Origin: Candidatus Woesearchaeota archaeon
GTDB taxonomy: Archaea > Nanobdellota > Nanobdellia > Woesearchaeales > WJKR01
Assembly (NCBI GenBank): GCA_016927245.1
Contig: JAFGNA010000008.1
Coordinates: 1-59,260, forward strand
Reading direction: 5' to 3'
DNA length: 59,260 nt
The notes beneath the pieces are model-generated. The model ran no database searches and had not been told where the DNA came from. It saw nothing but the letters and a program-made list of their open reading frames with translations. A program made the position numbers and the translations under genes. Below, in pieces: positions 11,330 through 54,109 of this stretch (the stretch's first letter is position 1; the number at the start of each line of letters is the position of its first letter).

Positions 11330-14300
11330 ATGAGAAGATTCCTCTTCCTGGCACTCATCAGCATCATGCTCAGCACGCTCGTCCCAGCGTATGACGGCTA
11401 CAGCGACCCCTATGAAGGTTTCCGCCTCGGCACGAGAAGCCTCCTCTTCGCCGAGGAGGAGGCGACGAAGACGCTCACCATCACCGTGGAGGACGACGCC
11501 GTCTACCAGACAGGGCACTACTCCATCAACAACCAATGGGTCCCCTTCACCTTCACCGAAGAAGCGGTGAACGGCTGGATACGGACAGGAACAGCGAGCG
11601 CGAGCATCACCATACCCAGAAGCAGCAACACCGACAACTTCGTCATCACATACAGCTGCTCGCGCACCGGCGAATCATGGGACTGCCACGGCAACCGATG
11701 GCAACTACACCAGTTCAACACCACCACCGAGGACGCACAGAGGCAATGGGACTTCGAGAATGACATCGGAGGGACGCTCCACGGAGCCAGCATCACCGAG
11801 GACGAGGAGCGCGGCAACGTCCTCCTCCTCGACGGGCAGGACGACTACCTCGACATCGGCGCGTTCAGCACCGCAGGCGACGAACTCACCATCGCTGCGT
11901 GGTTCAACCTCGAACGCCTCCCGCCCGAGAAGGACCCGCGCATCATCTGCAAAGGGGAAAGCCAAGACTACCAAGACTGGGCGCTCCTCATCCACCGCGA
12001 CGGCTACCCTGAGTTCAGGTACGACTACGGGTGGCAGGCCAACCCTGAAGGAGTGGTGGCGGGCGCGACGACGAGCGTGACGACCGGCGAATGGCACCAC
12101 GTCGCCGGCGTGTACGGCCAAGGACGAATGACCCTCTACTATGACGGGGTAGCGGTCGCGAGCAAGACGCTCAGCACGGGAACGGTCGGCGAGACGAGCA
12201 ACCCCGTCTGGATAGGAGGACAACCCACCGACCCGACGAACAGGCCGTTCCCCGGCATGATCGATGACGTACGGGTATACGAACGAGCGCTCACCGCGGC
12301 GGAGATAGCAGGCCTGCACGCAGGCCTAGGAACGACAGGGAAAGGCGTGTACCTCGACTGCGAGGCAGTCTCAGGAACTATCGTGGCCGACGCCTCAGGA
12401 GCGGGGAATGACGGCGAGCTCCACGGGCCGGAACAAGCCACGGGCAAGCACGGCAAAGGGCTGGCATTCGCGCACGGCGACCACGTCAGGATACCAGGGC
12501 TGCTAGGGATGCCCGAGAGCATGACGCTCGCCGCGTGGGTGAACCTCGAATCGCTCGGCAGCTACGGCTCCGACATCATCTCGCTAGGGGACAACGCCCT
12601 CTTACGGCTGAGGAACGACCGGCTCGACGCGTACTTCTACGACGGCAACGACTGGCAGGAGACGTCAGGGGCAGCGACGATAACAACAGGGAAGTGGACG
12701 CACGTCGCGTACACGATCGACAACGACGCGCACGCACAACGGCTCTACCGAGACGGGATGGAGATCGCCGCCACGAACCACGCGGGAAGCATCGACTACG
12801 CCCGCAACGCCGACACGTACATCGGCATCCACGGCGACGGGCAAGGACACTTCAGCTTCGCAGGGACGCTCGACGAGATACGAGTCCACGGCAGGGCGCT
12901 CTCGGCCGGGGAGATAGCGGCGCTCGCAGGCACGTCGTGCTCATCAGACGAGGAGTGCCCGGAAAGCACGACGACGACGTACTGCTCGGGGAACGACGCG
13001 TACCGACAGATCGTCGACTGGTCCTGCGCGGACGGCGCGTGCGAAGAGGAAACAACAACGACGTTCATAGAAACGTGCACGTACGGCTGCTCTTCAGGCG
13101 CGTGCACGGCGTGCACGCCCAACGACAACGAGTGCGGCAGCGACGGCTGCGGAGGACAACACCCCGCCTGCGCGGAAGGCCATGAATGCCAGGAAGGGGT
13201 GTGCGTGCAGCGACCAGTCCCGAACAACGAATTACAACCGTTGCGGGTGAGCGATAATAACCGCTACGTGGTCAAGGAAGACGGCACCCCATTCTTCTAC
13301 CTAGGAGACACGGCCTGGCGGCTACCCTACAGGGCGTACCCATCAGAGGTCGACGAGTACTTGGAAACCAGGGCGGAGCAAGGGTTCACGGTCATCATGA
13401 TGGACGCGTTCGAACTCAGCCCTGACAACCAAGCGATCATCAACCTCGCGGGGGAGAAACCATTCATCAACGACGAGGTCACCCGTTTCAACGAGGCGTA
13501 CTGGGGACAGGTCGACCACATCATCGACAAGGCGGACGCGCTAGGACTGTACGTCGCGCTGCTCCCGGTATGGGGGAGCACGGTCGTGAGGCATCAGTAC
13601 GTCGACGCCGATAACGCCTATGACTACGGCGTCGCCATCGGGGAGCGCTACAAAGACCGTGATAACCTCGTCTGGGTGATGGGCGGCGACCACCGCCTGT
13701 ACGACTACTCGACCGACTACATCCACGTCTATAACGAGATCGCCAGAGGGGTCACGCAAGGATGCACCGGCGGGCAACACCACGACGAGGTCATCATGAC
13801 CCTGCACACCGCTGGATGGACGTACGACGTGCCTTACAGGAGCTCCAGCGACCACTTCCACGACGAAGCATGGCTCGATTTCAACTCGTTCCAATCAGGG
13901 CACGGCGAAGACTACCCGAACCACGACATCGTCGAGCACGACTACGCGCTCACCCCGGCGAAGCCGACGCAAGACGCAGAGCCGATCTACGAAGGGCACT
14001 GGTTCAGCTGGAACGAGGCGAACGGGATGGCGAACGACGTCGACGTCAGGCACGCCGCTTACTGGTCGGTCTTCGCAGGCAGCTTCGGGCACACGTACGG
14101 CCACTGCATGGTCTTCCAGTTCTACAAGGAAGAATTCTCTGGCAAGGACGCCACGTACCACTTCGTCTGCGGCGACGAGGAAGCATGGATGACCTCCCTG
14201 CAAGCGGCGGGGGCGAACGACATGCGGCACTTGCGCAACCTGATGGAATCACGGCCATTCCTCGAACGGGTGCCAGACCAGGCGATCATCGCGTCCTCCA

Positions 14301-14581: not shown

Positions 14582-14629
14582 TTACCACAGGCAAAAGCTA
14601 TATAAAAGCGCTATCATAGGAAGAGCAAC

Positions 14630-15957: not shown

Positions 15958-18117
15958 ATGAGACGCGGCGCCAAGGGGTGGATGGCCCTCATACTCCTCG
16001 TCGCCGTCGGGTGCGCCGGCGCGACGCCCCACCCATACTATGAAGGGTTCAGCGCGGCAGAGCCGGGATTCACCATCAACGACGAAGTACAAATAGCTGA
16101 CGACGCAGTGTATGAACAAGCATGGTACAGCATCAACGAGACCGACTGGCAACCGCTCACACTCACAGGGACGCCCTACGGGCAGAACGACTCTTGGCTC
16201 AGAGGAACAAGCACCGCGGCACTACCACCAGGACTCCGAGGACCAGGGCTCCACTACGTCATCGCCTACACGTGTACCTACGAACAGGATTGGGACTGCC
16301 ACGGAGGACAATGGCAACTGCGCACCATCAACAACTCTCTTAACAACACCCTAGACAACCTCGACCAGGGATTCCTACGCACGTTCTACGTCTCCAACGA
16401 CGGCGACGACGCGAACGACGGGACGACACCATCAACCCCTTGGAAGACTATTGCCCAGGTGAACGAGCAGGCGTTCCTGCCCGGCGACGCAGTCCTGTTC
16501 CGGAGAGGCGACACCTTCATCGGCTCGCTGACGCCGCCGAGTTCGGGGAACGCCACTCATTACATCACTTTCGGCGCTTATAGTGCTGGTGAGCGACCGA
16601 TCATCACGCCAAACGATTACGTTGAAGGCTTGACGTGGACCGCTCACGGCAACGGGATTTACAAAACAACCGACATCCCTTTCAACCCAGGGAATGTATT
16701 GATTGACGGGACTACGAAGATCAATAAGATAAACGATAAGTTCTTCGCGACACCAAGCCCTTATTTAAATTATACTTCATTGGATTTCTTGGCCCTTCCC
16801 GACGATCACAAATGGGATGATGATCATTATATCAGCCCCTACTGTCTTGACACTCAGTTCTGGGATGGGCTAGACGCTTTATACGCGTATGATAACATGA
16901 CGGGGACGACCTACATCCGTTTTCGGGGAGGGGATGACCCGAATGATTACTCCTTTGCTATTTCCCCACAAGACAGGTTTTATGCTGCGGTCACTATAAA
17001 TCGTATGAATCATTTAGTCATACAGAATTTGCATATCGTTGGGGGAGAAAGAGGCGTTTATGTTCTGGGATCGAAATCCGAGTCAAATGAAAACATCATC
17101 ATCGAGAACAACCTCATAGAATCGTCCAACGGAAAGATATATTTGTCCAGCTCAGAAGCGATTATTGTCAGGAACAATACGTTCAGAAACAATTATCTCA
17201 GCCCTTACAAGCCCGGGGCGTGGTCAAAGGGGAACACGTACGAGGATGGCGTGCAATTCCAATACTATCTTTTTTTCAAGGTCGTAGTGACTCCTAGTTC
17301 ATCCTGCTCAGCTGACGGAGCGGTCGTGATGTCAGGAGGGTATTCTGACAACTCCGCATTTTACAATAATACTGTGTCGGGGTTGTGCTGCGGTTTCAGC
17401 ACCTACGGGGATAACATCAGCATCCATGATAACTACATAGAAGGCACCTCGAGCATCGGGGTGTATCTCGGTATGCGGGGCACGTCATACGTGCATGACA
17501 ATTACATCGTTGACAGCAACATCCCGTTCAGGTTCGGCTCGGTTGACAGGACCACGTTTGACAACAGGGTGCATTACGTGTACAGGAACAAGGTGTACAT
17601 CCCTGACGCCGGAGAGGTCATCTACATCCATTATGACAACACAGGACCATCAGTCACAAAAGCGTACATTTATCACAATAGCTTCATAACGCGTACAGGG
17701 CCGCAGATATCCGGTTATGTCAAGAATTATCCTCCTTATGGTTCAGGATTCGTCTTCATCAACAATATCATCTCAGCAAGCCAGACAGCATTCTACACCT
17801 GGTCAACCTCAGGAGAGTACGACGATCTTTTCACCGTTGACTATAACTGGATCAGCGGACGATATTACGGCAAGGAATCCGTTCCCTGGGCGCCGGTACC
17901 GAACAATATCGCGTATCCCGACGGACCGACCTTTTGGGATCACGCCATAAACCCTCCTGATTTCACCGCCATCGAGGGCACGGAAGCCATCGACGCAGGA
18001 ATCGATGTCTCCCATGATTTCGTCCTGGGTGGCGTGACGTACCCTGCCCTGCCAGGGATGGACGCCTACTATTGCAAGTCCCCGCCGGACATGGGAGCAG
18101 TGCAGCACTGCCCGTGA
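15958..18117 (+). CDS. Secreted lipoprotein-like protein: N-terminal WDCHG module plus right-handed parallel beta-helix (pectate-lyase-like)
   Basis: Lipobox-like VAVGCAG; module DDAVYEQAWYSINETDWQPLTLTG...WDCHGGQWQL; FYVSNDGDDANDGTTPSTPWKTIAQVN start and repeated NN/VHDNYI rungs. ATG 15958 chosen; the listed longer ORF overlaps the HerA-like gene. Confidence 0.82.
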   Translation: MRRGAKGWMALILLVAVGCAGATPHPYYEGFSAAEPGFTINDEVQIADDAVYEQAWYSINETDWQPLTLTGTPYGQNDSWLRGTSTAALPPGLRGPGLHYVIAYTCTYEQDWDCHGGQWQLRTINNSLNNTLDNLDQGFLRTFYVSNDGDDANDGTTPSTPWKTIAQVNEQAFLPGDAVLFRRGDTFIGSLTPPSSGNATHYITFGAYSAGERPIITPNDYVEGLTWTAHGNGIYKTTDIPFNPGNVLIDGTTKINKINDKFFATPSPYLNYTSLDFLALPDDHKWDDDHYISPYCLDTQFWDGLDALYAYDNMTGTTYIRFRGGDDPNDYSFAISPQDRFYAAVTINRMNHLVIQNLHIVGGERGVYVLGSKSESNENIIIENNLIESSNGKIYLSSSEAIIVRNNTFRNNYLSPYKPGAWSKGNTYEDGVQFQYYLFFKVVVTPSSSCSADGAVVMSGGYSDNSAFYNNTVSGLCCGFSTYGDNISIHDNYIEGTSSIGVYLGMRGTSYVHDNYIVDSNIPFRFGSVDRTTFDNRVHYVYRNKVYIPDAGEVIYIHYDNTGPSVTKAYIYHNSFITRTGPQISGYVKNYPPYGSGFVFINNIISASQTAFYTWSTSGEYDDLFTVDYNWISGRYYGKESVPWAPVPNNIAYPDGPTFWDHAINPPDFTAIEGTEAIDAGIDVSHDFVLGGVTYPALPGMDAYYCKSPPDMGAVQHCP

Positions 18118-27896: not shown

Positions 27897-30800
27897 TTAG
27901 CACGTCGTGGAAGGCGCGTACATGCCGTCGCGCGTGGCGAACAACCAGTAGCCGGCGCCAGGGTCCATGCGTGACGACTCGTCGAAGTACAGCCACTTGT
28001 CCGTGAAGGGTTCCCAGTAGCCCAGGAGCGAACTGTACCCCTTGACATCGACGCTGGGCGAGAGCGATGACAACGCGCAAGCGGCGGTCTTGCCGTTGCC
28101 CACGTAGCCGTCGAAGGATGACTGACCATCGGTGCCGTAGTAGCCTATCATGTTCCATCCCATCTTGACATCCACGTACAGCTCTGGATGGATGCCTTGA
28201 TGGCCGAACAAGGGGATATCGGTCGCTCCTGTCGTCAAGACCCAGTAGCCCGCGCCGGGCTTGAGGTGGTGCAGGTCGCTCGGCGCGTCAGGCTTCCAGA
28301 TGAGCCAGGAATCGCTAGAGGCGTTGTAATACCAGGCACCAGCAACTTCTGGGTAATCGCCGAAGACGTGGCCAGGGCTGTCGTTGAGGAGGGTGAACGG
28401 CACGCTGACCAAGTTCCACTTCTTGTTCAGGTGCAGGGTGAACTCTTCACCCGTCACCTTGAAGTACTCCAGGTCCGCTGAGGCCTTGTTCACGCGGTCC
28501 TTGCACGTGATGTTGAGCTCGTGCCAGGAGTCCTCGCCGAAGCGCAGCGTGAAGGGGTCGGAGCCCACGCAGCACTTGCCGTCGACCATGGTGCCTTCGC
28601 AATAATCGGCCGTGGCGTCATCGCCGTCGAGAAGGACGGTGAAGCAGATGTCCTGCACGCCTGACGGGTAGTCGCCGAGGTCATCGCAGGAGACGAGTAT
28701 GTCGGTGTCCTTAGAGACCTGCCAGCAATTGCCGGTGAACGCGCAGTAGTTCTCCCCTTCAGGGTCGATGACCGGGTAGTAATGGGCGCCGAGCGATTGC
28801 TGGTCGAGCGGCATGGGTCCTGACGGCGCGCCGACCTCCTTGGTGATGACGGGCGGGGTCTTGTCCACGAACACGCAGTCCCAACCTATCGATGAGTCGC
28901 CGTACGTCGTCCAAGAGTAATGCTCGATGACGTAGCACGCCTCTGATGGGAGGGCGAAAGGCTCGGTGTAGGGCGTCCAGCCGTCGATGCCAGGCTGCCA
29001 GGCGTCGCACGCGCCGAGGCAGTACGCGTCGTCGGCCTCGTAGTAGCGGTAGCGGTGGTCTCCTTCGAGGCACGCGTCCACCTCATTGATGATGACGAGC
29101 TCGACGCGAGAGGCGGTGTCGATCCACTGGCTGGTGCCGTTCGTGTAGTATGGGTCCTTGTAAGCGATGTCGAGGCAGTCAGGAATCCATTCCAGGGAGC
29201 ACTCCTCCGTGCAGGCGTACCCTTCCGGGACTCCTGCCGTGCCGTCGCACTCCTCCTCACCATTCACGATGCCGTCGCCGCAGAACGGTCCTTCCTCTGT
29301 CTCCGGCTGGCATGAACCAGAGCAATAGGTGCAGGTCCCGCCGTAGCCGGGCGTGCAGGCAACACCATTCAACGTGCCGTTGTCGCAGGTCTCAGGAGGG
29401 TCCTGGAGGAGGCCGTCGCCGCAGAACGGTCCTTGGAGCACGACCTCCTCGCACGTCTCCGAGCAATACGTGCACGAGGAGCCATAGCCAGGAACGCAAG
29501 GAATGCCGTTATCCTCTCCCCGGTCACACTCCTCGCCGTCGTCGAGGAAGCCGTCGCCGCACCCAGGAACGTGTTCGAGAGCGTTGAACGCGATGCAGTG
29601 ATAGGTCTTGCCCAACTGCAGGTCGCCCACCCAGTCATAGTTGTCGAAGTTCAGGACGTCGTTGCCGCAGTACAGCTCAGCGCTCACCGGGTCCTGAGGG
29701 TCTCCTGGGGGGTTCACGAAAGGAATGTAGCCTGCCTGGAGGTTCTCGCGTACCCATAGGTGGGGTGATTCTCGCAAGTCGTAGATTTCCGCCGTCGCGG
29801 GAACGCCGCCGGGATTGGTGGGCGTGTCGAAGTCCTTCCATTCATCATAGCCAGCCCCCGTGGTTGTTGGTCCGATGAAGCTGCCATCAAGCTTGGGGAC
29901 GTCGCTGTACCCCCACTGGAAGCTCCAACCGTCCTCGAGCCAGCAGTGCTCGTTGTTCGCGGCGACGTACTCAGCAGCGGTGCCGTCGTCGAGGATTGTC
30001 GGCTCGCCAGGCTGGGTTCCTGAGAGCCCCCAGTCAGGGAGGTGCTCTTCCGCTTCGCACACCACCTTGTACGCCTTGAGGATGAGCGGTTCTATCTCGC
30101 ACGTGGCCGAGCAGCCGTCACCGTCAACGTTGTTGCCGTCATCGCACTCCTCACCTTCATGGACTATGCCGTCACCGCAGTACTCGTCCACGCAGTACCC
30201 GTTGTCGTTGTTGTGCTCCCAGTCGATCTTGCGGTCGCCGTACAATTCTTGGGAGAGGTCTGTGATGGCGTCGCCGCAGAACAGGTCTATCTGGTACGCG
30301 CACTCGGGCAAGGAAACGGAGAGGTCGACGCTGCCGAACGCCGGCGCGACGTCCTCGTCAAAGTCATAGAGGACTTGGTTGGCGATGACCTCGTCAAACT
30401 TCTCGTAGACCGCGAGGCCGACCTCGTAGTCGTGCGGCGCGCCGTTGGTCACCGTGGCTGAGCCGCCCGTGATGCTTCCTGATAGCAAGCCGGCCTGCAA
30501 GGCCTCGACACAGGAGAGGTCGAGGTAGGTGCAGTCAACAGCGCAATACGATTCTCCATCGCACTCCTCGTACTCCCCGTGATCATTGGGGTGTTGCACG
30601 ATGCCATCGCCGCAGTAGCTCAAGCACTCGACCGTGGTCTCTTCCTCGATGCACTGGGTGCCTAGCTGGTCTGACCACACGCACACCTCGTTGAGCAAGG
30701 TGCTGTCGCACGCAGCCTCTTCGCTGACGGTCATCTGGATGTCGATGACGTGCAAATCGCCGGGCATGACCGTGCCGAAATTCCAGTGGTCGTCGCCTGA

Positions 30801-31764: not shown

Positions 31765-32586
31765 TCAGTCCTTGGCCTTCTTTTGCCTGATGGCGACGAG
31801 GCCGATGATGCCTGCGATGACGAGGAGGAAGGCGACGAGGAGTATCCACGAGGTCGCGCCGCCGCCGACGACCGCGCCGGTGATGCGGTTGAACACGCCT
31901 TCTTTCTGCGTTGCTGGGGGCGCGGTGAACGCTTCCATGTTCTCTATCTCGCAGGATTGACGCTCGGCGGGCATGCCGTCATCGGTGCCGCACTGGTTCT
32001 TGTCGGCGCACGTCCTGGTCTGCTGTCCGTTGGCGCACTCGCCCCACGCGGTGCACACCCAGTCAGGGGTGCACGTGACGATCTCGATGGTCTCGTTGTC
32101 GTCATCGTCGGTGGCATTGTCGTCGTCGCCTGTCGTCGTGATGATGATGTTATTGTTTGAGCTGCTGCTCGAGCTGCTGCTGGAGGAGCCGCCGCCTGAG
32201 GATCCGCCGTCGTCATCGCCGGTGTCTATCTCGACGGAGAGGTCGAGCTCCGTGCTCTGGCCGTTGTCGAACGTGTACGTAGCCGCGAGCTTGAGGTTGT
32301 CCTCGTCGGGGCCGACGTAGAACCGTATCTTGTCTCCTTGCCGGTCGTTGTTCGGGTCCTCGATGTAGAATATGGGTTCGTGGCCGTACTGGCCGTCGAT
32401 GACGAACACCTGCTTGGCCACGCCATTGATGACTGCTTCGACGAGGTAGAGGTCTGGTGCTGGTTCGTCGTTGACGAGGACGTCGCCGTAGAATTGGTGC
32501 GGGACGCCCGGGGCGGCGCTCGTCGCTGCGGTCATGATGACGAGTAGGAAGGCCGCCGTGAATCCTTGGGAAACGCGCTTGTTCAT
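31765..32586 (-). CDS. Membrane-anchored surface protein with poly-Ser linker and TSP1-like Cys motif
   Basis: Signal peptide, SSGGGSSSSSSSSSSNNN, CTPDWVCTAWGECANGQQTRTCADKNQCG, C-terminal TM. Confidence 0.75.
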   Translation of the reverse strand: MNKRVSQGFTAAFLLVIMTAATSAAPGVPHQFYGDVLVNDEPAPDLYLVEAVINGVAKQVFVIDGQYGHEPIFYIEDPNNDRQGDKIRFYVGPDEDNLKLAATYTFDNGQSTELDLSVEIDTGDDDGGSSGGGSSSSSSSSSSNNNIIITTTGDDDNATDDDDNETIEIVTCTPDWVCTAWGECANGQQTRTCADKNQCGTDDGMPAERQSCEIENMEAFTAPPATQKEGVFNRITGAVVGGGATSWILLVAFLLVIAGIIGLVAIRQKKAKD

Positions 32587-35600: not shown

Positions 35601-37494
35601 CGTTCTCGCCGTTATCAGCGACGTAGCACTCGTCACTGCTCGGCTCAGGCGAAGGCGGGCACGTGCCGAGGTGGTCCTCGCCGATCATCGTCTTGGTGAT
35701 GCTCGGCGCGGTGTCATCCACCTTGTAGTACTGCGTGTGCACGTCAGTCTTCTTCTCCACCGCGTCGACGCAGTAATACGAGAGGCTGTGCTTCGACTCC
35801 TCATCAGCGTTGAAGGAGAACTCGAACTCCTTTTCCTCATCGACCGCGACGCAGCAGAAGCCGTCATCGGTCAAGTCACCATCGCAGTAATCGGCCGTGA
35901 TGTCCGTCTCCCAAGAAGGCATGTCATACCCGACCTTGTAGCAGAGCAGCTCATCCTCTGAGGGGTGGTCCGCCTCGCCGTTCCACGTGTCATCGCACGT
36001 GAAGGTGATCGGCATGCTGCTGGTTATCCAGTGGAACGCTCCCTCAAGGTTGTCATCGGTCATGAAGGCCGACTCGCCCCTGTCCAGGATGGCGTCGCCG
36101 TTGTCCTTCTTGAGCTCAGGCGCGGTCTTGTCCACGAAGAAGCAGTTCGTCTCGACATCCTCGACGTTGCCGAGGAGGTCGACGCTGAAATACTCCATGA
36201 CATGGCAGGACTCCGAGATGTCAGAGATGACCTGGCCGGGGCGGTAGAGCTTCCACTCACTACTGACCTCACAGCGCCGGTAGGACATCTGCTCGACGCA
36301 GTCGTACCAGTCATCGAACTCGCGCTCGCCGCCAGTGGCGCACTCCTTCTGCACCTCATCGATGCATCCTTCATAACGTTCCTCGTCATAAGGAGTCTCG
36401 CCGCTCACCACGCAGTAATCAGCAGGCTTCCAGCAAGCGTCCTCGGACTCGTCCAGCGAGATCCGATACCAAGTCTTGTCAACGCCGATGTCACAACCGA
36501 ACCCGGTCGGATCAGGATCAGGATCCACGGCGGAGAGGGAAATCTCCGTGACAGAATCAATCCACTCGACATCGCCATCGACCTTCTTCGGGTCGCCGAT
36601 GACCTTCGTCGTGACAGGAGGCGTGTCGTCCACCTTTTCTGCTTCTGTTATCGTCTCTTTGTTGCCCACGACATCATAACATTCGATAGTGACGTCGTGC
36701 ATGGAATCCTCATTGAACTGGAAGTCGAAGTCGAGCGTTTCGCCGTTTTTGAACACGCACCAACCATCCTTATAGGTACCGCCGAATCCGGCGCATTCTG
36801 TCGCGAAGTCAGCGTCTGCTTTGCCATCGACAGTGTAGGTGTATTGGCAGTAGTCCAACCCAAGGTTGCATTCGTCCTGAACTGTGCTATCATTAGCGAA
36901 GATATTAATGTTCGTGCTATAGGTCATCCAACCATCGAAATCATCATCACAATATGTGGGTTGTGTCGTGCAATTGATGAATGGTGAACCGATTGTCTTA
37001 TTCATCAGAGGTTTTGAGCAATCGACATATAAATTTAGGTTCTGTTTCCTCTCCTCTCCGTCATTTGATCCGCCAGCAAGTCCTTCGTTATCAAGGGTGC
37101 TTACCGTGAAAACACTTGTGCACGCGGTCGGATTCTTTAATACTGCATCAAAAGTGAAGTTTAAATGACTCCCGTTATCAATCGCGTAAGTGCCAGTAGG
37201 ATCATCTGCGCGATAATGACAGAAATATGCATCGTCAACTATCTTTGTCCAACCAAGAGGAGCAAGCCCACAGGTTATAGTATCCACATTTACCTGTGTC
37301 TTCTGAATCTTAACATCATAAATATCGCCAGTGCTGCCCCCGTTATTCTCCACAATCACCGTGAACGTGTTTCCGGGCTGATCACAGTTCGCCATGTTTG
37401 GTGTTAAGGTAACTGTTGACGTGTGCGCCGCGCTCACCATGCCCACGGCAAGCAATGCTATTACTATCAGAATTCCTATGTTCTTGTTCCTCAT
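32698..37494 (-). CDS. Giant adhesin-like secreted protein (about 1598 aa) of tandem Ig-like units with C-terminal LNKKWN domain
   Basis: ATG 37494 (MRNKNIGILIVIALLAVGMVSAA signal peptide); repeated VDDTPPVTTKVIGDPK-like units; C-terminus FKIDLNKKWNLISVPV...GWNLIGYYG...GAGYWLLYNQG. Confidence 0.85.
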   Translation of the reverse strand: MRNKNIGILIVIALLAVGMVSAAHTSTVTLTPNMANCDQPGNTFTVIVENNGGSTGDIYDVKIQKTQVNVDTITCGLAPLGWTKIVDDAYFCHYRADDPTGTYAIDNGSHLNFTFDAVLKNPTACTSVFTVSTLDNEGLAGGSNDGEERKQNLNLYVDCSKPLMNKTIGSPFINCTTQPTYCDDDFDGWMTYSTNINIFANDSTVQDECNLGLDYCQYTYTVDGKADADFATECAGFGGTYKDGWCVFKNGETLDFDFQFNEDSMHDVTIECYDVVGNKETITEAEKVDDTPPVTTKVIGDPKKVDGDVEWIDSVTEISLSAVDPDPDPTGFGCDIGVDKTWYRISLDESEDACWKPADYCVVSGETPYDEERYEGCIDEVQKECATGGEREFDDWYDCVEQMSYRRCEVSSEWKLYRPGQVISDISESCHVMEYFSVDLLGNVEDVETNCFFVDKTAPELKKDNGDAILDRGESAFMTDDNLEGAFHWITSSMPITFTCDDTWNGEADHPSEDELLCYKVGYDMPSWETDITADYCDGDLTDDGFCCVAVDEEKEFEFSFNADEESKHSLSYYCVDAVEKKTDVHTQYYKVDDTAPSITKTMIGEDHLGTCPPSPEPSSDECYVADNGENGVSIAVADGGAVCAVDNTLCTYELWWNASLEECQDVLGPEHLYDFSKGWCFVEGGEFGESGQDVIFNEDSTHVLIVNCADDLGNEMLEDVQEFLVDSTPPVTTKTYDEYVEFPYPKGCVDDMPLSLEYMSVRNGNGFEPCVLAKYITSATNISLSASDEKVGTDFTEYRVSRPLGESLCANCDGWMDALRPDMGDWSTYAEPFSIPEDSCHVIEYRSTDLLGNVEDIKWQCVFVDNQPPMVDKLIGAPNVTKDDDLYITMDTPITMVCDDRVDDHPVDHVELFWHYRSAETCGELVGMEEGWTDLESVTAEDLELADPYRLEKTIYFPEDSCHELEYWCVDALGNTAGPFTEIDIVDSVAPVITTGIEGPSVDNGTHVFIDGVTNITVDAYDPDPHPVEGVLCNFTYDVIGGPKEGLPEEEQELAPPFKVNFPEESEHVLSIECWDALGNTATKDEVYLVDKTAPGIWKEYSWLFSDVYKDEVGDYYAKFTSADAPIYAGVWDEGPHQSGIAEVKYKVSLAADDACKYYLEVPNGDIHVETAMQQLPQFAYEFGCDEASAGDWVTVDPEDYDEFNFTVGEESCHLIEVMATDNVDKCKLHRQYVYVDATAPETAKVIGIPKSPMSEGNIELGQVYFENLTTAFCAEGEENCMEVTLLTSIDLACNDPEPHPSNGEAIYFQVSLDGDDVTPEYCSGVSGGEYIDDVESEHYGFCYVASGVSSFYFTEETWHKLTYYCEDHVGNVGVPDVEYFKVEGTSFKIDLNKKWNLISVPVRLQDDSMDAVFLDQPGIVSVWSFDGHDWHVYTPGGVNDLDTLVPGDGYWVLTTEPSTLTIGGSLLSPTVTPPGKDIVKGWNLIGYYGVEGAPTDDDDVPYYGGPNLWGEGRPVLCALDTLNPAWGTNVAPSLWTYWEPDNPAVWKQLDDQVHWMNPGAGYWLLYNQGGEVGEVSGIYAPATGCGFLDYKPVFAS

Positions 37495-37663
37495 GTTGTA
37501 CCACCTTCTTTGATTATTTTCGGCGGATGGAGGGCTTGAGCGCGCAGTCTTAATTCTAGCAGGTTTCAACAATACCAGTAACATGCCACTCTAGCGGTCC
37601 CCCTACCCCCCAACAACACCATATCCAAAGGGGAAGACGAATTAATATTTAAATTTTCGTGTT

Positions 37664-40239: not shown

Positions 40240-40363
40240 TGCGGACGGCAGGATTCGAACCTGCGAAAGCACTAAGCTACGAGCCCCTGAAGCCCGCCCG
40301 TCTCGTCTGAACACGCAGAAGCAAAGCTCCGCGATACTCATTTGACCGCTCCGGCACGTCCGC
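40240..40363 (-). tRNA. tRNA-Leu(CAG) with about 39-nt intron in the D-arm (about 40303-40341)
   Basis: GCGGACG/CGUCCGC acceptor, GCAGG-UUCGAAU-CCUGC T-arm, contiguous anticodon arm CGGGC-UUCAGGG-GCUCG, long variable arm; excess length between D-loop and anticodon stem. Confidence 0.8.
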
Positions 40364-41288
40364 ACAGTTGTTGCAGCTTCCGCACCTTCTTGCGGGAGCT
40401 GAGCAGGCCAGAATCAGCCACTGTTTTTAAGTATTTTGTCCTTATACGCAATTCATAATGGATGCTGACCCGTTCTGCACCGCTGATGTGGACCCTTATA
40501 GGGTATATGGTGGATGGAATTCCTATACGCAACAGGAGTTCCTGGACACCAAGAAGGATGTTGGACGAGGCAGGTCTTTCTTCAAACAGGTCTTTGACGT
40601 GACACCAACCACAGATTCTGTAAGCGATATTCTTCATGGTATACGGTTTTCCGCGGGCGAAAAGTGCCTTGCGTAGCTGCTTGTCAGGAAAAATTCGTAC
40701 AGATTGATGTACACACACCGTCTTATGCACAGACGCTTCAGCATTGAAGAAGCCACGCAAGAATGCTTTTTGCATTGCAGGAGTCACAAGGAAAGACAGA
40801 GGAAGAACCGGATTCAGCACACTCTTCTTTCCCAAAGGATAGCCAAACTCATGCAAGTATCTCGCAAAGCTCCGCCGCAACTTAATACAGAAATAACCCT
40901 TGTCGATAACCCGCGGCTCAAAACCAAATAAACGACTTGTGATGAATGCGATGCGTTCAACAACATCCCTTTCGTCAGCAGAAAATACGAGAACAGCATC
41001 ATAGCAACCATGTCCAGCGTTCTTGTTCTTACTTAGAGAACCATCCCCATACATACATCCCAATAACTCAGCAAAAAGACATACTTCTTCACCAAAAAAT
41101 GAAGAAGCATCCCTATACTTCACCCCTCTTCCACGTAGTGGAACACCACCTCCCTTCAAGATGATCCGAATCGACTCCCGGCCACACACACCCCCAGTGA
41201 AATCAACCACTTCTCGAATAGACATGCCCATCTCATAGGCATCGATAATCATCGCGCGATCAACAGCGTCCATGAAGAGAAGCATCAA
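40338..41288 (-). CDS. LAGLIDADG homing-endonuclease-like protein overlapping tRNA-Leu
   Basis: Two LAGLIDADG-like motifs (FAELLGCMYGDGSLS, AFLRGFFNAEASV); C-terminal GRAGAVK* encoded by tRNA-Leu 5' sequence. Confidence 0.75.
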   Translation of the reverse strand: MMLLFMDAVDRAMIIDAYEMGMSIREVVDFTGGVCGRESIRIILKGGGVPLRGRGVKYRDASSFFGEEVCLFAELLGCMYGDGSLSKNKNAGHGCYDAVLVFSADERDVVERIAFITSRLFGFEPRVIDKGYFCIKLRRSFARYLHEFGYPLGKKSVLNPVLPLSFLVTPAMQKAFLRGFFNAEASVHKTVCVHQSVRIFPDKQLRKALFARGKPYTMKNIAYRICGWCHVKDLFEERPASSNILLGVQELLLRIGIPSTIYPIRVHISGAERVSIHYELRIRTKYLKTVADSGLLSSRKKVRKLQQLCGRAGAVK

Positions 41289-44553: not shown

Positions 44554-47500
44554 TCAACCGTAGACGACGAAGCCGCCGGAACGCGTGAACGGCACCGACT
44601 TACCGTTGAGCAAGAGCGTGTCAGCGGCGGGCGCGTACAGCCTCAGAGAAGAGACGCCAAGCCCATCCACCGAAGCGACAGGCCCGGTCCGCGAACTCGA
44701 CGCGGAAACAGGACCGGAACTCGTCACGGAGAACAGCGCCGTCCCGGAGAACGACAACGACTTCCCCTCCTCCAACAACAAAGCCTCCACGGTCGACCCC
44801 GTCGTCCTCACCGCGGCGAAGAGCGCGTCGGTCGCCACCCCGTTCGCGCTGTAAGACGAGGACTTGCGCTCCAGCAAGTAATCCTTCCTATCACCACCCC
44901 AATCAAGCGTCGCCCAAGTGCCCGATGCTGAGGAGCCGGACGTGATAACCGGCAAAGGCATGCCGCTCCTGCGAGGATAATGGACGGTGAAGAAGTGAGC
45001 CTCGACACCGTTCTGCACGGCGAGGGCCAAGTTATGCGTCAAGCCCGCATAGGAGGAGTAATACGTCCCGATAGTCCCAGAGAACGATTCTGGCTGGACG
45101 AAATACACGTACAAGTCAGCAGACGAGCCGTCCAGCACGAACGGATCACCGATAGCGCCCGAACCCGTCACTGTTTTGTACGTGTGCACGCGCCACTCAT
45201 ACTTATGCGTGGACGAATCCTTCCTGACCTGGTCAATCGTGACGAGGTACGGAGGCGCGTGCTCCCCATTGACCAAGGAGAAGATACGGTTCGCCTTCTG
45301 AAAAGGAGGATAAGGCACGCTCCTATCAGCGTACGGCACGCTCGCTTCGCCCCTCGCAACCGTGCCGCCACTACCAGAAGTGAAACCAATAATCTGCCCC
45401 TCGCTCGAATAGAAATCATTAGAAGGAACCTCAGGAGACTCATGATCATCAATAACGATAGTATTATGCTCAAGCACGTTACCGCGACCCTTCTCAGTAT
45501 AGGGCTTCTGCTGCTCATCAGTATAGAACCGGTCACCATACGCGGTGAGGCTGAAACCGTTCGCGTCATAATGCATGTGCTGCGTACGCGCATACCTTGT
45601 AGTCACCCAAGCAGTAATCTCGTCCACATCATCCCAGCCCGTGCGCAACCCCAAGAACCCGCCCTTGCCTGAGTGGTCCTTGAAGAAATAACTATCCGGC
45701 AAGCGCGCAACCTCAGGGCTCACCGACGAGTAATCCTCAGGATAGAACAACACGACATAAAACTCCGGATAATACCCGTACTGAGAAGTCAACCCAGGAT
45801 TGCTGAACGACCAGAACCAACGCCACACCGGATCCTCAGAGAGGGCTATAGGGACGAGCGCGTACGGAGGCATGCGCGACGTATAATAATTATCAGGGCT
45901 CTTACCAGCAGTGCCGGGCTTCTGCGTGTTATCACCATAGTTCGGCATGCCATTATCCGTGGTGTGCGCGTACGCGAAGAACAACGGGGCGTTGTACGCA
46001 TAGCCGCCGGTCACGAAGTCCTTGCCGAGGTAGCGCTCGTACGCGTACGCGAAGAGGAACTCCTGAGGACCCCCATAGGTAGCGTAGCCATGGCCATCAT
46101 TGTAAAAGCCGTGCGGCTCGTACGAGCTCCAAGCGGCCGTGTTGAAGAGCGTGTTGATCCGGGACACAGCAGTGGTGAAATAAGTGCCCTTGATGAGCGC
46201 GTCATCAGTCTCGTCATGCAAGACCAAGCATATCATGCCGAGCGACGCCCAGCCGCCCGACCAGAAATTGGACGTGCTCGCCTTGCCGTCATTCAAATGC
46301 TCCCAATGCCAATGCGCCATGCCCTCCAACCAGCTCTTGACCTGGGCCCGCTCAGCAGAGGTCAAATGATCATACACGAGGTCATACGCGACGGCCATGG
46401 ACCAACCCCACATGTCATCACCATACATCCGATCGTCATACATGGGGACGCACGTGTCAGGATCGCAGGCATACATGATATTCTTCATGGAAGCCACCGC
46501 TGCGTCACCATACGCGCCGCTCCCGGTCAACGCGTACTTCAAGGAAAGCTCGACGAGCTCATGGTCCCAGTAATCGCCCGACGCCGACACCGTGCCGGTG
46601 TGCAGACGAGAGAACGCGGCGGCAGAAAGACTCCCTGACTTGGCCACCTTCGCCTGCAAAGAGGGCACGTCGGCCGCGGAGAAGAACAGGAAAGGATGAT
46701 CGCCCGACACGGGAACCGAGCAATCATTATCATTCGAGGAAGTGCAACCGCTAGGGCAACAGCCATCGTAGGATGTGCAAGCAGTGACCGCGGCAGGAAC
46801 ACACACCACGTCGCAACTAGCAGGACTGCCCGTCAACGTCTCGGTCGTGCACGGATCGCCATCATTGCACGACGAGGGACAATCACCGTCGCACGTCTCC
46901 GGAGGCTCCGTCACGCCATTGCCGCACTCGGCCTCGATGCCGAACACCACGCCGACCTCCGCCGCGGTGAGCGGCCGGTCCCAGACCATCACCTCATCGA
47001 TGACACCCCGGAAGCTCCGCCCCTCGCTCCCGATCTGCGAGAACGTGAACCCATCAGCACCAGCGACCGTCGACTGGGCCTGATACGCCCCGTCCAAGTA
47101 GAGAGTGAGCCTGTCGCCGTCCTTGACGAGCACGACATGGGTGAGCGTATCCGCAGGCGGCGCGTACGCAGAGCTCAGCTGCATCTCCTGGCCATTAGTG
47201 TCCGTCTCGAGCCGGAACGCGGCGTTATCCCTCCGGAGGAAAATCCTCGAATATGAGGAGTACCTTGACAGGACGAGCCGATCGTCCGAAAGGTCTGCCG
47301 AACGGGAGATCCAGAACGAGTACGTCCCGTCATCCTGGGAGTTGAGCCGGTCGAGCAGGATGAAGTCATCATCCCCGTCGAACAAGTAGCACCGCCCCGA
47401 CTTGCACCCTGACGAGACCGCTGCGAGCGTGCTCGAAGGCGTGCCGTGATTGTCGCCCACCACGTCCCGGCCATCGCCGTCCAGCGGCCACCACGACACC

Positions 47501-48585
47501 AACCCCGAAGGCAGGTCGTCCAGGCACAGAGGGCACGAGCCGCCGCAATCAACACCCGTCTCGTCCTGGTTCTGCACGCCATCGCTACAAGTAGGAACAA
47601 CCGTGACGCCCTCCTCGTACAGCAATAACACCTCCTCGTCCGTGAGCGCCGACGAGAATATGCTTACGTCATCAATCATCCCAGGAAAAGGCCTGCTCAG
47701 AGGATCAACACCCTGACCTCCCAGCCACACCGCATGACCATTCTCCTCCAAACCACCAACAATCATCCTAGAAGCCACCGGCACCCCATCAAAATAGAGC
47801 GTGGCCTCACCGCCATCAAAAACACCCGCGACATGATGCCAAACACCCGGAGAGACCTGTATCTCTTGGTTACGCACCTGACCGTCATTCACGCTGCTCC
47901 CATGATGATAACGGAACTCAGGATAACCATCACGGCTGACGAGCAACGCCCAATCCTGATAACCCGTGGAGTCCCCCTTGCTGATGACACGAGGGTCCTG
48001 GTCAGAAGGAACGCTATCAATGTTGAACCACGCAGCAACGCTCAACGCATCACCGACAACACTGAACGAGCCTGCGTCCAGATAATCATCCACGCCGTCA
48101 AGGAAGAGCACGCCTCCCCTTCCAGGATCCTGCACGACCGCCGCTCCGTGAATCGTGCCAAGACCGACACCACCATCAAAATCCCAATAATAATCGGGAC
48201 CAACCGAGGAAAGACCGCTATTATTGATGATGAGCAGCTGCCACTGCCCGCCATGGCAGTCCCAAGCGCGCTCGACCAACGAACAAGAATAAACGAGCAC
48301 GTAATGCTCACCACTACCAAAACTTGGCAAGGAAGCGGAAGCCTCGCCGGCAAGCCACTCATCATGACTACCCAACGAAGCACCGGACAACTCAAAAGAC
48401 ACCCAGCCACCACCACCAACACTATACCAACCCTGATGAAACACGGCGGTGTCAGCGATGAGCAACGAGCCATCATCAAACAAGACGTCATGCGCCTGCG
48501 AGAACCCCTGATGAACAGGGTGCTGAGCGGCGATGACCGCCGCCACGAGCAGCAAGGAGACCAAGAACCACGAAGCACACCTCAT
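44554..48585 (-). CDS. Secreted multidomain protein: N-terminal WDCHG module, two LamG-like domains, heparinase II/III-like lyase
   Basis: Module TAVFHQGWYSVGGGGWVSFELSG...AWDCHGGQWQLLIINN; LamG-like LDGVDDYLDAGSF; HPFLFFSAADVPSLQAKVA; MHYDANGFSLTAYGDRFYTDEQQKPYTEKGRGNVLEHNTIVIDDHE. Confidence 0.82.
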   Translation of the reverse strand: MRCASWFLVSLLLVAAVIAAQHPVHQGFSQAHDVLFDDGSLLIADTAVFHQGWYSVGGGGWVSFELSGASLGSHDEWLAGEASASLPSFGSGEHYVLVYSCSLVERAWDCHGGQWQLLIINNSGLSSVGPDYYWDFDGGVGLGTIHGAAVVQDPGRGGVLFLDGVDDYLDAGSFSVVGDALSVAAWFNIDSVPSDQDPRVISKGDSTGYQDWALLVSRDGYPEFRYHHGSSVNDGQVRNQEIQVSPGVWHHVAGVFDGGEATLYFDGVPVASRMIVGGLEENGHAVWLGGQGVDPLSRPFPGMIDDVSIFSSALTDEEVLLLYEEGVTVVPTCSDGVQNQDETGVDCGGSCPLCLDDLPSGLVSWWPLDGDGRDVVGDNHGTPSSTLAAVSSGCKSGRCYLFDGDDDFILLDRLNSQDDGTYSFWISRSADLSDDRLVLSRYSSYSRIFLRRDNAAFRLETDTNGQEMQLSSAYAPPADTLTHVVLVKDGDRLTLYLDGAYQAQSTVAGADGFTFSQIGSEGRSFRGVIDEVMVWDRPLTAAEVGVVFGIEAECGNGVTEPPETCDGDCPSSCNDGDPCTTETLTGSPASCDVVCVPAAVTACTSYDGCCPSGCTSSNDNDCSVPVSGDHPFLFFSAADVPSLQAKVAKSGSLSAAAFSRLHTGTVSASGDYWDHELVELSLKYALTGSGAYGDAAVASMKNIMYACDPDTCVPMYDDRMYGDDMWGWSMAVAYDLVYDHLTSAERAQVKSWLEGMAHWHWEHLNDGKASTSNFWSGGWASLGMICLVLHDETDDALIKGTYFTTAVSRINTLFNTAAWSSYEPHGFYNDGHGYATYGGPQEFLFAYAYERYLGKDFVTGGYAYNAPLFFAYAHTTDNGMPNYGDNTQKPGTAGKSPDNYYTSRMPPYALVPIALSEDPVWRWFWSFSNPGLTSQYGYYPEFYVVLFYPEDYSSVSPEVARLPDSYFFKDHSGKGGFLGLRTGWDDVDEITAWVTTRYARTQHMHYDANGFSLTAYGDRFYTDEQQKPYTEKGRGNVLEHNTIVIDDHESPEVPSNDFYSSEGQIIGFTSGSGGTVARGEASVPYADRSVPYPPFQKANRIFSLVNGEHAPPYLVTIDQVRKDSSTHKYEWRVHTYKTVTGSGAIGDPFVLDGSSADLYVYFVQPESFSGTIGTYYSSYAGLTHNLALAVQNGVEAHFFTVHYPRRSGMPLPVITSGSSASGTWATLDWGGDRKDYLLERKSSSYSANGVATDALFAAVRTTGSTVEALLLEEGKSLSFSGTALFSVTSSGPVSASSSRTGPVASVDGLGVSSLRLYAPAADTLLLNGKSVPFTRSGGFVVYG

Positions 48586-49198: not shown

Positions 49199-49502
49199 GA
49201 CCACCCGGGAATAAAACTCGTGGAGAACAAGACGAACACCGCATATTTAAAGATTATGCTTCTAGAAGAAATAGGGAAGCAGGATGAAGATAACGAGGAG
49301 GACGAGCAGGATGATGAACAAGGCCCGCCACGGTCTCCTCCTCCGGGAAACACTCCTCGCCAACCGCTGCTTATCAGCGCTGCTCAACCGCCGCAACGCC
49401 CGCTCCGAACGCGCCATGCCACCACCAACAAGAACAACCCCTTAATAAACGTTTGGCCAAGAAAAAGAAGCACTTAAATACAGCCGGCGCGGAAGGGCAC
49501 TC

Positions 49503-50180: not shown

Positions 50181-50203
50181 AGTTCTAAAAAAAAAAGGAA
50201 GAG

Positions 50204-50404: not shown

Positions 50405-50431
50405 GACTCTTCAAGGCAGATGAATAGCGGA

Positions 50432-51084: not shown

Positions 51085-51217
51085 AAGTGTTACACGCAGA
51101 GATGACCAGTGCAAACATTAAAATGACACCCTTCGCGAACGAGCCAACCCCTCAGCAGTCTCTACCCAACAAAAAAAAGACATATTTAAATAACCGTTCT
51201 GCCGAGACCACACCAAG

Positions 51218-54109
51218 ATGCGCCTCCCCCGCGCCGAGGCCGCAGGCCTCCTCATCATAGCAGTATCCGCAATAGCCCTCGCCCTGCTCGCCCCGACCAA
51301 CCCCGCAGGCCTCGCAACGCACGAACACTACCCCCTCTTCAGCGAGCCGCACGGCGCCTCACTGAGCGACAACGATCTCCACGTCACCGACGACGCCGTG
51401 CACAAGACCGCGTACTACAGCGTCGCCGGCGAGGATTGGCAACCATTCACCCTGCAAGGAACGGCATACGGCACGAGCAACGACTGGTTGAGAGGACCAG
51501 TCTCGCACCCGTTACCAACCTCGCTACGAGGCGACGGCGAACACTACATCATCACGTATTCCTGCTCGCTCATCGAAGACGACTGGGACTGCCACGGCAA
51601 CAACGACCACCCAGGCGGCTTCTGGCAACTCCTCATCACCAACAACACAAACGGCCAAACACTCATCAACAACATCAAAACGACGAGCGGGAAAGCCTAC
51701 GAACCAGCCCGGCTCTCCCTCAACGAGCGCGCCTACCTCGACCGAGACTTCTTGTTCAGCGACATCCCCCCCTCATTAGAAGGAGAACTCTTCCTGCGCA
51801 CCGCGAACAACGACAAAGGATACACAGGCGACTTCCTCACCTTCGACCTCACAAAGGACGCCACCCTCTACGTCGCGATGGACGAACGCAACACGCCACC
51901 CCCCTCCTGGCTTGACAAGTGGACGAAGACGGGACACACGGCGGCCATCGACGAAGGAACGACCTACGAGCTCTACCAGGAAGAACACGAGGCAGGAATG
52001 GTCATCCTCGGCGGCAACGAGAACTACGGCGACAACAGCATGTACGTCGTCATCATCACCGAGGAACCCGCCGAGCCCGCGACGGGCTTCCTCGCGGACG
52101 GATTCGAAACAGGGCTCAAAGCACCGTTCCTCACCATCACCAACGACGGGCTCATCGAGACGACGACCGCGCACGCCCATTCTGGCATGAGCTCACTCCA
52201 CCTCAGAGGATACGGCACGCACCACTACACGCGCCCGGACAGCGGCAACGACGGCCTGGTCGCAGCGCTAAACGGCGGAGAAACAGTCACGCTCTCAGGT
52301 TACGCCCGCGGCGACAGCTCCGCGGAAGGTTACCTCATGCTCCTCTGCCTCGGCACCACGCTCAACTACTGGGAGAACGGCGGCTCGACCCGCAGCACGG
52401 TATTCACGCCGACCGACAACTGGGAACACTATTCCGTGACCGCCACGTGCGACCCCGAAGCGGTCGGAGTCGGCGTACGCGTCTCCGTGAGGCACAACGG
52501 CGACATCTGGTATGACGACCTGACCATCAGCGTCGACGGCGACGACTGCCTACCAGCGACCTGCGCCTCGCTCGACAAGGAATGCGGCGAGTGGAACGAC
52601 GGCTGCACCGGCACCATCGATTGCGGCAGTTGCGAGGAAGGCATGACGTGCAGCGATGACGGGGAGTGTGTGAGCTGCACCCCCGAACCACTAGCAGAGA
52701 CGTGCGGCGACGATTGCGGCTACCACACCAACAACTGCCACCAACAAGTGTACTGCGGCAGCTGCGACACCGGCACGGAACGGCTCGTCGTCATGGACAA
52801 CGGCCGCTACCTGATGAAACGAGACTCCCAAGCGCCGTTCTTCTACCTCGGCGACACCGCGTGGTGGTTGTTGGGAAAGCTCACCAAAGAGGAAATCACC
52901 ACGTACCTGGACGCCCGCGAAGCCCAAGGGTTCAACGTCATCATGATCATGGGGCACGCGTACGCCCTGGAACCGAACAAGTACGGCCACAAGCCTTACA
53001 ATAATGATGACTTCACCGACCCGCGCGTAGTGACGGGGCCTGACAACGATTACTGGGACCTCATGGACTTCTTCCTCGACGAGGCGGAGGCGAGGGGAAT
53101 GTACGTCGCCATCGTCCCGGTGTGGGGCAAGTTCTACATCCTCGGCGAGAGAGGACAAAAAGTCACGGCGAGCAACGCGTACGAGGTGGGGAGGTTCTAC
53201 GGCGAGCGCTACGGCGGCCGAGAGCACATCGTCTGGATCATGGGCGGGGACATGAGGCCTGACGGCTACGAGCACGTGTTCTCCTTGATGGCCGAAGGCA
53301 TCATCGACGGCTCGGGGAAGAGCGAGGAGGACGTCCTCCTCACGTATCACCCGCCCGGGTGGTACGAGGACCAAGGCTACAGGCACTCCTCATCCTACGA
53401 GCTGCACGACGAGGCCTGGCTGGACATGAACGGCATCCAATCAGGGCACTACGACAGCGACACCTACCCGTTGCCTAATTACAAGTACGTCGAGCACGAC
53501 TACTTGCTTACGCCGGCGAAGCCCACCGCGGAGATGGAATCGTTGTACGAGGACATCCCCTTCAAGAACAACCCTGACAATCACCGAGGAGACGCGTACG
53601 ACGTGCGGAGGAACGCTTATTGGAGCGTGTTCGCGGGCGGGTACGGCTACACGCTCGGCAACCTGCACATCTTCTCGTTCTGGGACCCGGACGCGGGCAC
53701 AAATAATAATTGGTATGCGTACGAGCACTGGGAAGAGAACCTCTACACCGAAGCGTCACAAGACCTGACCCACCTCGCAGCGCTGATGAACGAGCGGCCG
53801 TTCTCAACGCTCAGGCCAGACCAAGAGCTCATCACCTCCTCCAACAGCGACGACACCAACAGGGTGCAGGCCATCAGGGCGAACGACGGCAGCTACGCCT
53901 ACGTCTACGTCCCGAACAAGGACGCAAGGCCGACCGTGACCATCGACCTCGGCCGCCTATCAGGCAACACCTTAGACGCCAAGTGGTACGACCCGCGAGA
54001 AGGGACGTACGGACCGACAAGCACCATCACCAACACGGGGACGAGCCGCACGTTCACCCTCCCCACCACCTCAGGACAGGACTGGGTGCTCGTCATCGAA
54101 GAGGAGTAA
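51218..54109 (+). CDS. Secreted multidomain protein: N-terminal WDCHG module, carbohydrate-binding-like region, Cys-rich linker, GH140/DUF4038-like catalytic region
   Basis: DDAVHKTAYYSVAGEDWQPFTLQG...DDWDCHGNNDHPGGFWQLLITNN; RLVVMDNGRYLMKRDSQAPFFYLGDTAWWLLGKLTKEEITTYLDAREAQGFNVIMIMG. Confidence 0.82.
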   Translation: MRLPRAEAAGLLIIAVSAIALALLAPTNPAGLATHEHYPLFSEPHGASLSDNDLHVTDDAVHKTAYYSVAGEDWQPFTLQGTAYGTSNDWLRGPVSHPLPTSLRGDGEHYIITYSCSLIEDDWDCHGNNDHPGGFWQLLITNNTNGQTLINNIKTTSGKAYEPARLSLNERAYLDRDFLFSDIPPSLEGELFLRTANNDKGYTGDFLTFDLTKDATLYVAMDERNTPPPSWLDKWTKTGHTAAIDEGTTYELYQEEHEAGMVILGGNENYGDNSMYVVIITEEPAEPATGFLADGFETGLKAPFLTITNDGLIETTTAHAHSGMSSLHLRGYGTHHYTRPDSGNDGLVAALNGGETVTLSGYARGDSSAEGYLMLLCLGTTLNYWENGGSTRSTVFTPTDNWEHYSVTATCDPEAVGVGVRVSVRHNGDIWYDDLTISVDGDDCLPATCASLDKECGEWNDGCTGTIDCGSCEEGMTCSDDGECVSCTPEPLAETCGDDCGYHTNNCHQQVYCGSCDTGTERLVVMDNGRYLMKRDSQAPFFYLGDTAWWLLGKLTKEEITTYLDAREAQGFNVIMIMGHAYALEPNKYGHKPYNNDDFTDPRVVTGPDNDYWDLMDFFLDEAEARGMYVAIVPVWGKFYILGERGQKVTASNAYEVGRFYGERYGGREHIVWIMGGDMRPDGYEHVFSLMAEGIIDGSGKSEEDVLLTYHPPGWYEDQGYRHSSSYELHDEAWLDMNGIQSGHYDSDTYPLPNYKYVEHDYLLTPAKPTAEMESLYEDIPFKNNPDNHRGDAYDVRRNAYWSVFAGGYGYTLGNLHIFSFWDPDAGTNNNWYAYEHWEENLYTEASQDLTHLAALMNERPFSTLRPDQELITSSNSDDTNRVQAIRANDGSYAYVYVPNKDARPTVTIDLGRLSGNTLDAKWYDPREGTYGPTSTITNTGTSRTFTLPTTSGQDWVLVIEEE

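What the first reader, a model, noticed from the sequence alone, without database searches (positions are those of the whole stretch)
11330..54109. Shared N-terminal module on four secreted carbohydrate-active-like proteins
The products of 11330-14581, 15958-18117, 44554-48585 and 51218-54109 carry unrelated catalytic regions (GH140/DUF4038-like x2, beta-helix, heparinase II/III-like). All four begin, right after the signal peptide, with the same module of about 110-130 aa: DDAVxxxxxYSxxxxxWxxFxLxGxxxGxxxxWLxG...LP...GxHYxIxYSCxxxxxxWDCHGGxWQLxxxNN. Examples: VYEQAWYSINETDWQPLTLTG...HYVIAYTCTYEQDWDCHGGQWQL and VHKTAYYSVAGEDWQPFTLQG...HYIITYSCSLIEDDWDCHGNNDHPGGFWQL. I cannot name a family for it. 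The invariant Cys pair (YSC...WDCHG) suggests a disulfide-stabilised beta domain acting as cell-surface retention or carbohydrate binding. Together this looks like a dispersed archaeal extracellular polysaccharide-degrading system unified by one targeting module.
Basis: partly seen in the sequence, partly recalled or inferred. Interest (0 to 1): 0.82.

Follow-up and report, generated by a model that had tools for sequence, protein, structure and literature searches.

The report
Archaeal N-terminal header on secreted enzymes
A tiny-genomed archaeon puts the same small, previously unnamed surface domain at the front of every polysaccharide-degrading enzyme we detected in its genome; the domain looks like a general cell-surface 'header' of its lineage rather than a sugar-binding part, much like the unrelated spacer domains that gut Bacteroidota use.

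Summary
The four window proteins share a ~105-aa module just after the signal segment, on unrelated effector regions. The host genome (1.1 Mb) holds 15 copies on five contigs, including two operon-like runs of four genes. All Apiosidase (3), DUF4838 (4), GH5 (1) and beta-helix (5) proteins found in this genome carry it; three LamG proteins without a recognised enzyme domain do not.

The module matches no Pfam, NCBIfam or PHROG family and no PDB sequence. AlphaFold2 models (pLDDT 92-94) give a compact all-beta domain; the nearest folds are Ig-like, with no confident match.

It is not specific to carbohydrate enzymes. 34 of 371 genomes of the phylum carry it (named ones: Woesearchaeota), mostly 1-4 copies, on lipoproteins and membrane-anchored proteins such as cupredoxins, CARDB and S-layer-like proteins. 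It is almost always the first domain after the anchor. Thirteen host copies form one clade although their enzymes differ, and those enzymes are nearly absent from relatives.

Best reading: a lineage-specific Ig-like membrane-proximal header/spacer, functionally like Bacteroidota BACON/DUF1735, fused to enzymes that look acquired. Carbohydrate binding or S-layer docking is possible but unshown.

The parts
11330..14581 (+). Secreted protein P0001 (1083 aa): signal segment, module, two LamG, Cys-rich linker, Apiosidase-like (PF13204), Collagen_bind_2
   Evidence: aligns with solved Apiosidase 8t9w over residues 638-1081, E=1.5e-93
11399..11719 (+). Header module, most divergent of the main 14 copies
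11831..12310 (+). LamG domain 1 of P0001
12476..12919 (+). LamG domain 2 of P0001
13250..14263 (+). Apiosidase-like catalytic domain of P0001
   Evidence: 5.3e-95
15958..18117 (+). Secreted protein P0002 (719 aa): signal segment with possible lipobox (AVGC), module, right-handed beta-helix
16024..16335 (+). Header module (AlphaFold2 query, pLDDT 92, pTM 0.83)
16987..17517 (+). Beta-helix region of P0002
44554..48585 (-). Secreted protein P0004 (1343 aa): signal segment, module, two LamG, Cys-rich linker, heparinase II/III-like region
48220..48528 (-). Header module
47629..48099 (-). LamG domain 1 of P0004
46954..47352 (-). LamG domain 2 of P0004
45172..45600 (-). Hepar_II_III_C-like region of P0004 (weak, below curated cut-off)
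   Evidence: 0.0086; oligoalginate lyase model 0.0024 upstream
51218..54109 (+). Secreted protein P0003 (963 aa): signal or anchor segment, module, unassigned region, Cys-rich linkers, Apiosidase-like, Collagen_bind_2
51314..51646 (+). Header module
52796..53803 (+). Apiosidase-like catalytic domain of P0003
   Evidence: 1.1e-81

Best explanation
The module is a lineage-specific, Ig-like beta-sandwich domain that sits first after the signal or anchor segment and acts as a membrane-proximal header: it lets the exported protein fold, spaces it and presents it at the archaeal envelope. It is used generally on lipid- or membrane-anchored proteins across Woesearchaeales. In this organism it was duplicated and fused to a set of polysaccharide-degrading enzymes that look acquired (apiosidase-like, DUF4838, GH5, alginate/heparinase-lyase-like, beta-helix), giving a surface-displayed degradation system. 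Shown here: the shared module, its N-terminal position, its lineage distribution, its fusion to unrelated effectors, the single clade of most host copies, and a confident all-beta model. Inferred: the precise Ig-like topology, the spacer/header role, surface retention, the disulfide and the acquisition of the enzymes.
For: Fifteen host copies, all the first domain after a hydrophobic N-terminal segment. All 3 Apiosidase, 4 DUF4838, 1 GH5 and 5 beta-helix proteins found in the genome carry it; the 15th copy is on a polysaccharide-lyase-like protein (weak). In other genomes it is first after the anchor in 51 of 56 distinct copies by a simple hydrophobicity test, and in 2 more by eye; 31 of them have a lipobox-like Cys. 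In 58 non-host proteins the attached domains are CARDB, Big_7, MopE motifs, cupredoxin, PEBP, PD40, S_layer_C and a few carbohydrate-active ones. AlphaFold2 models: pLDDT 92.2 / pTM 0.83 and 93.8 / 0.85. Best fold matches are Ig-like domains, with no hit at E<=0.001. Thirteen of 14 host copies form one clade (94/95) across different enzyme types. DUF4838 was found in 1 of 288 genomes of the order, and Apiosidase in 2 of 60 relatives, own genome included. Precedent: BACON, DUF1735 and SusE/F N-terminal Ig-like spacers of Bacteroidota (PMC11216935).
Against: Only 2 of 15 host copies have a lipobox-like Cys; several others look like cleavable signal peptides. If so, a pure spacer has nothing to be spaced from, and the module would itself have to bind the surface. 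Four invariant Trp are many for a plain spacer, and no coordinates were available to see whether any is exposed. Foldseek gave no confident fold match, so the Ig-like label rests on weak similarities (TM about 0.45 or less). In this host the module is only on carbohydrate-active-like or LamG proteins.
Confidence: 0.58

Rival explanations
1. The module is a carbohydrate-binding module that brings the enzymes to their substrate.
For: In this genome it occurs only with carbohydrate-active-like or LamG domains. Conserved aromatic residues (invariant Trp in the family alignments).
Against: In 58 proteins of other genomes it mostly precedes non-carbohydrate domains. Always one copy and almost always N-terminal next to the anchor, unlike typical CBMs. 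The same proteins often already carry LamG or Malectin, candidate sugar-binding domains. No CBM family matches the module. The similar BACON domain, named for carbohydrate binding, was later assigned a spacer role (PMC11216935).
Confidence: 0.2
2. The module is a docking domain that holds secreted proteins to the archaeal S-layer or another envelope component, replacing a lipid anchor where the signal peptide is cleaved.
For: Kept across three kinds of N-terminus: lipobox-like, long hydrophobic anchor, apparently cleavable. No C-terminal membrane segment in the host proteins. Lineage-restricted, as expected for a domain fitted to a lineage-specific envelope.
Against: A docking domain is not needed on the lipid- or membrane-anchored majority of the family. 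No known S-layer-binding family matches. Signal type was judged by eye and pattern only.
Confidence: 0.17
3. The shared region is an integral part of one ancestral enzyme, inherited by common descent of whole proteins.
For: Three tandem DUF4838 proteins on C22 are co-linear over their whole length (44-53% identity after the module).
Against: The other copies sit on unrelated folds; the module tree does not follow enzyme type (the three Apiosidase proteins have modules on three different branches); the module is predicted to fold alone.
Confidence: 0.03

Closest known systems
BACON domain (PF13004) of Bacteroidota carbohydrate-active proteins
   Same: N-terminal, anchor-proximal, Ig-like beta sandwich, many unrelated C-terminal domains including GH5; several copies per genome (PMC11216935).
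   Different: No sequence match to PF13004; archaeal Woesearchaeales instead of Bacteroidota; conserved Cys pair and WDCH/WKCGC motif; host copies mostly without lipobox.
DUF1735 (PF08522) and the N-terminal domains of SusE/SusF
   Same: N-terminal spacer proposed, Ig-like fold, joined to LamG and GH domains (PMC11216935).
   Different: No sequence match; no Sus-type locus seen; not restricted to polysaccharide loci in the wider family.
Ig-like E-set domain of sulfite oxidase and immunoglobulin folds (PDB)
   Same: Best fold-level neighbours (1sox_A, E=1.3e-3, TM 0.44; antibody domains).
   Different: No sequence relation; similarity limited to general fold class.

Membership tests
BACON (PF13004) | Sequence match to the family profile | tested here: not met
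   no hit to PF13004 in the proteins or in 14 modules at E<=1
BACON (PF13004) | N-terminal, anchor-proximal place before varied C-terminal domains | tested here: met
BACON (PF13004) | Ig-like beta-sandwich fold | tested here: inconclusive
   all-beta model of high confidence; nearest folds Ig-like but none at E<=0.001
DUF1735 (PF08522) | Sequence match to the family profile | tested here: not met
DUF1735 (PF08522) | Lipoprotein signal in nearly all members | tested here: not met
   lipobox-like in 2 of 15 host and 31 of 51 other copies with a visible anchor, by pattern only
Carbohydrate-binding module (any CBM family) | Match to a CBM profile | tested here: not met
   the only CBM hit (CBM60, 0.012, sub-threshold) lies at residues 408-479 of the L015_12975 protein, outside the module
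Carbohydrate-binding module (any CBM family) | Measured binding to a glycan | not testable with these tools
   needs purified protein
Apiosidase-like PF13204 (P0001, P0003 enzyme parts) | Match above the curated cut-off and alignment with a solved apiosidase with the GGD and YE motifs retained | tested here: met
   (GGD and YE aligned to 8t9w for P0001; P0003 read by eye)
Heparinase II/III-like (P0004 enzyme part) | Match above the curated cut-off | tested here: not met
   16.0 bits against a cut-off of 24

The most novel reading that the evidence does not exclude
The module is an envelope-docking tag of Woesearchaeales: it binds the S-layer or another surface component and holds otherwise released enzymes on the cell. 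This archaeon would have used it to convert a whole set of acquired bacterial-type polysaccharide enzymes into a surface-bound degradation system, an archaeal analogue of both a Sus-type display and a cell-wall-binding domain.
Probability: 0.2. Interest if true: 0.75.

Novelty: new variant of a known kind. Interest (0 to 1): 0.55.

Why it matters
DPANN archaea are usually seen as reduced and dependent on partners. Here a 1.1-Mb genome carries 15 large secreted proteins, mostly built for complex polysaccharides, each with the same native header, on enzyme domains nearly absent from its relatives. That gives a concrete picture of how a small archaeon may capture foreign enzymes and display them. 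It also defines a previously unnamed domain family for annotating the many 'hypothetical' surface proteins of Woesearchaeota, and it parallels the independent use of N-terminal Ig-like spacers in Bacteroidota.

Tried and rejected
(1) A named family for the module: none in Pfam, NCBIfam, PHROGs or by sequence in the PDB (only lipocalin-type chance hits at E>=0.2). (2) WDCHG-form relatives in 84,980 species genomes or in viral contigs: none outside the own genome; the distant WKCGC form gave seven Woesearchaeota/Nanoarchaeota loci. (3) Fold neighbours in PDB and viral models: none at E<=0.001. BppU-like phage domains in the viral list (TM 0.42-0.44) were judged fold-class noise. (4) Common descent of whole proteins: rejected for most copies by the module tree and the unrelated effector regions. 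(5) A published description of this domain: none found in seven literature searches. (7) Signal-peptide type could not be decided without a predictor; only patterns were used.

Full report
The observation. The four ORFs exist as stated; the one at 44554-48585 reads on the minus strand. Each begins with a hydrophobic signal segment followed by a module of about 105 residues. Module identity among the four is 31-48%. The host genome, 1.11 Mb in 24 contigs and rated 100% complete, holds 14 copies of the same form on five contigs and a fifteenth, divergent one on C21. Across the 14, twelve columns are invariant, including Trp-Asp-Cys-His, Tyr-x-Cys and Trp-Gln-Leu.

What it is attached to in this genome. 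Besides the window's two Apiosidase-like proteins, beta-helix protein and heparinase-like protein, contig C6 has four consecutive genes 25-63 bases apart: Malectin + beta-helix; Malectin + LamG + Apiosidase; Malectin + GH5; two LamG + Alginate_lyase. Contig C22 has four consecutive genes 30-46 bases apart: three DUF4838 + beta-helix and one LamG + DUF4838. C20 has a 1567-aa protein with LamG, FG-GAP and a 3-keto-disaccharide hydrolase domain; C21 has a LamG protein cut by the contig end and the divergent copy, on a protein with weak polysaccharide-lyase matches. Searching the genome by enzyme family shows that every Apiosidase (3), DUF4838 (4), GH5 (1) and beta-helix protein (5) found carries the module. 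Three LamG proteins without a recognised enzyme domain lack it, as far as they were read; two of them (813 and 4580 aa) were read only in part, but the whole-genome module search found no copy there either.

What it is elsewhere. A profile of 16 modules finds it in 34 of 371 genomes of the phylum, 30 in the same order (own genome included) and 4 in the same class, with at most 4 copies in any other genome against 15 here; the one other genome of the same genus, 92% complete, has none. Loci with names are Candidatus Woesearchaeota or Nanoarchaeota. There the module follows a lipobox-like Cys (31 copies) or a membrane segment, often through a linker of the type LPPEPG...GPIGKA, and it is the first domain in nearly all cases. 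One real exception has it at the C-terminus (L118). The attached regions of 58 such proteins match CARDB, bacterial Ig, MopE metal motifs, cupredoxins, PEBP, beta-propeller, S-layer-like and phosphoesterase families, with only a few carbohydrate-active ones (GH114, Sde182-like, LamG). So the module belongs to exported proteins in general, and its tie to carbohydrate enzymes is a feature of this genome.

Fold. AlphaFold2 with only 14 aligned sequences gives pLDDT 92.2 and pTM 0.83 for the window module, and 93.8 and 0.85 for a lipoprotein relative; both are all-beta. Foldseek finds no solved structure at E<=0.001. The nearest are Ig-like: the sulfite oxidase E-set domain (1.3e-3, TM 0.44), antibody domains, FN3-type binders, PapD-like domains. 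'Ig-like' is therefore the most likely class but not proven. No coordinates were available, so the disulfide and the exposure of the Trp residues could not be checked.

How it arose. In a tree of 62 modules, 13 of 14 host copies form one group (UFBoot 94, SH-aLRT 95), whose neighbour is a copy from another genus (99/88); the copy at 11330 falls outside. Within the group the module tree cuts across enzyme types: the three Apiosidase proteins have modules on three different branches, and closely similar modules (60-77%) sit on beta-helix, Apiosidase, GH5 and LamG/FG-GAP proteins. DUF4838 was found in 1 of 288 genomes of the order (this one) and Apiosidase in 2 of 60 relatives, this one included, so the enzymes look acquired, though no tree against bacteria could be made. 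The simplest account is that a native header was duplicated and fused repeatedly to incoming enzymes. With about 100 alignment columns, deep branches are unresolved.

How it most likely works. The closest functional precedent is the N-terminal Ig-like spacer of Bacteroidota: BACON, DUF1735 and SusE/F N-domains, which carry a lipoprotein signal and hold varied C-terminal domains off the membrane (PMC11216935). Our module shares the position, the probable fold class and the variety of partners. It does not match those families by sequence and lies in another domain of life, so it works like them but is not a member. The weak point is that only 2 of 15 host copies have a lipobox-like Cys and several look like ordinary cleavable signals. 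If those are cleaved, either the proteins are released or the module itself docks to the envelope. I put the spacer/header reading at 0.58, carbohydrate binding at 0.20 and envelope docking at 0.17.

Are the enzymes sound? P0001 aligns over its whole Apiosidase part with the solved Apiosidase 8t9w (E=1.5e-93), with the Gly-Gly-Asp and Tyr-Glu motifs kept; P0003 shows the same motifs by eye. The heparinase-like assignment of P0004 is below the family's cut-off. Woesearchaeota have been suggested to secrete carbohydrate-active enzymes (PMC8421398); I found no report of a shared header.

Noticed in passing
40338-41288 (-): ORF with a LAGLIDADG-like domain and a weak helix-turn-helix match, a probable free-standing homing endonuclease or a regulator derived from one.
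   Followed up: partly
27897-31688 (-) and 32698-37584 (-): Two large Cys-rich surface proteins with a similar C-terminal part (LNKKWNLVSVP...GYWVLTT...GWNLIGYYG) that no Pfam model matched; possibly a second shared module of this genome, at the other end of the protein.
   Followed up: partly
N-termini of module proteins; also 31765-32586 (-) and 954-2141 (+) near their C-terminal membrane segments: A G-x-A motif, often ITGxA or GPIGKA, lies between anchor and module in most members (G nearly invariant in 58 proteins); a similar ITGAVV sits next to C-terminal membrane segments of other proteins in the window. Could be a processing or interface motif.
   Followed up: no
L118:2123-5080 (+) and L101:2936-4849 (-): Exceptions to the N-terminal rule: a module at the C-terminus of a 986-aa frame in G327, and a protein with two weak partial matches in G013.
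   Followed up: no
G000:C6:19192-30619 and G000:C22:6547-18472: Two operon-like runs of four module genes each, 11-12 kb, with 25-63 bases between genes.
   Followed up: partly
2230-4101 (+), 4900-8424 (+), 9534-10526 (-): By eye: aldehyde ferredoxin oxidoreductase-like, pyruvate:ferredoxin oxidoreductase-like and phosphotransacetylase-like proteins, suggesting fermentation of sugars towards acetate. Not tested by family search.
   Followed up: no
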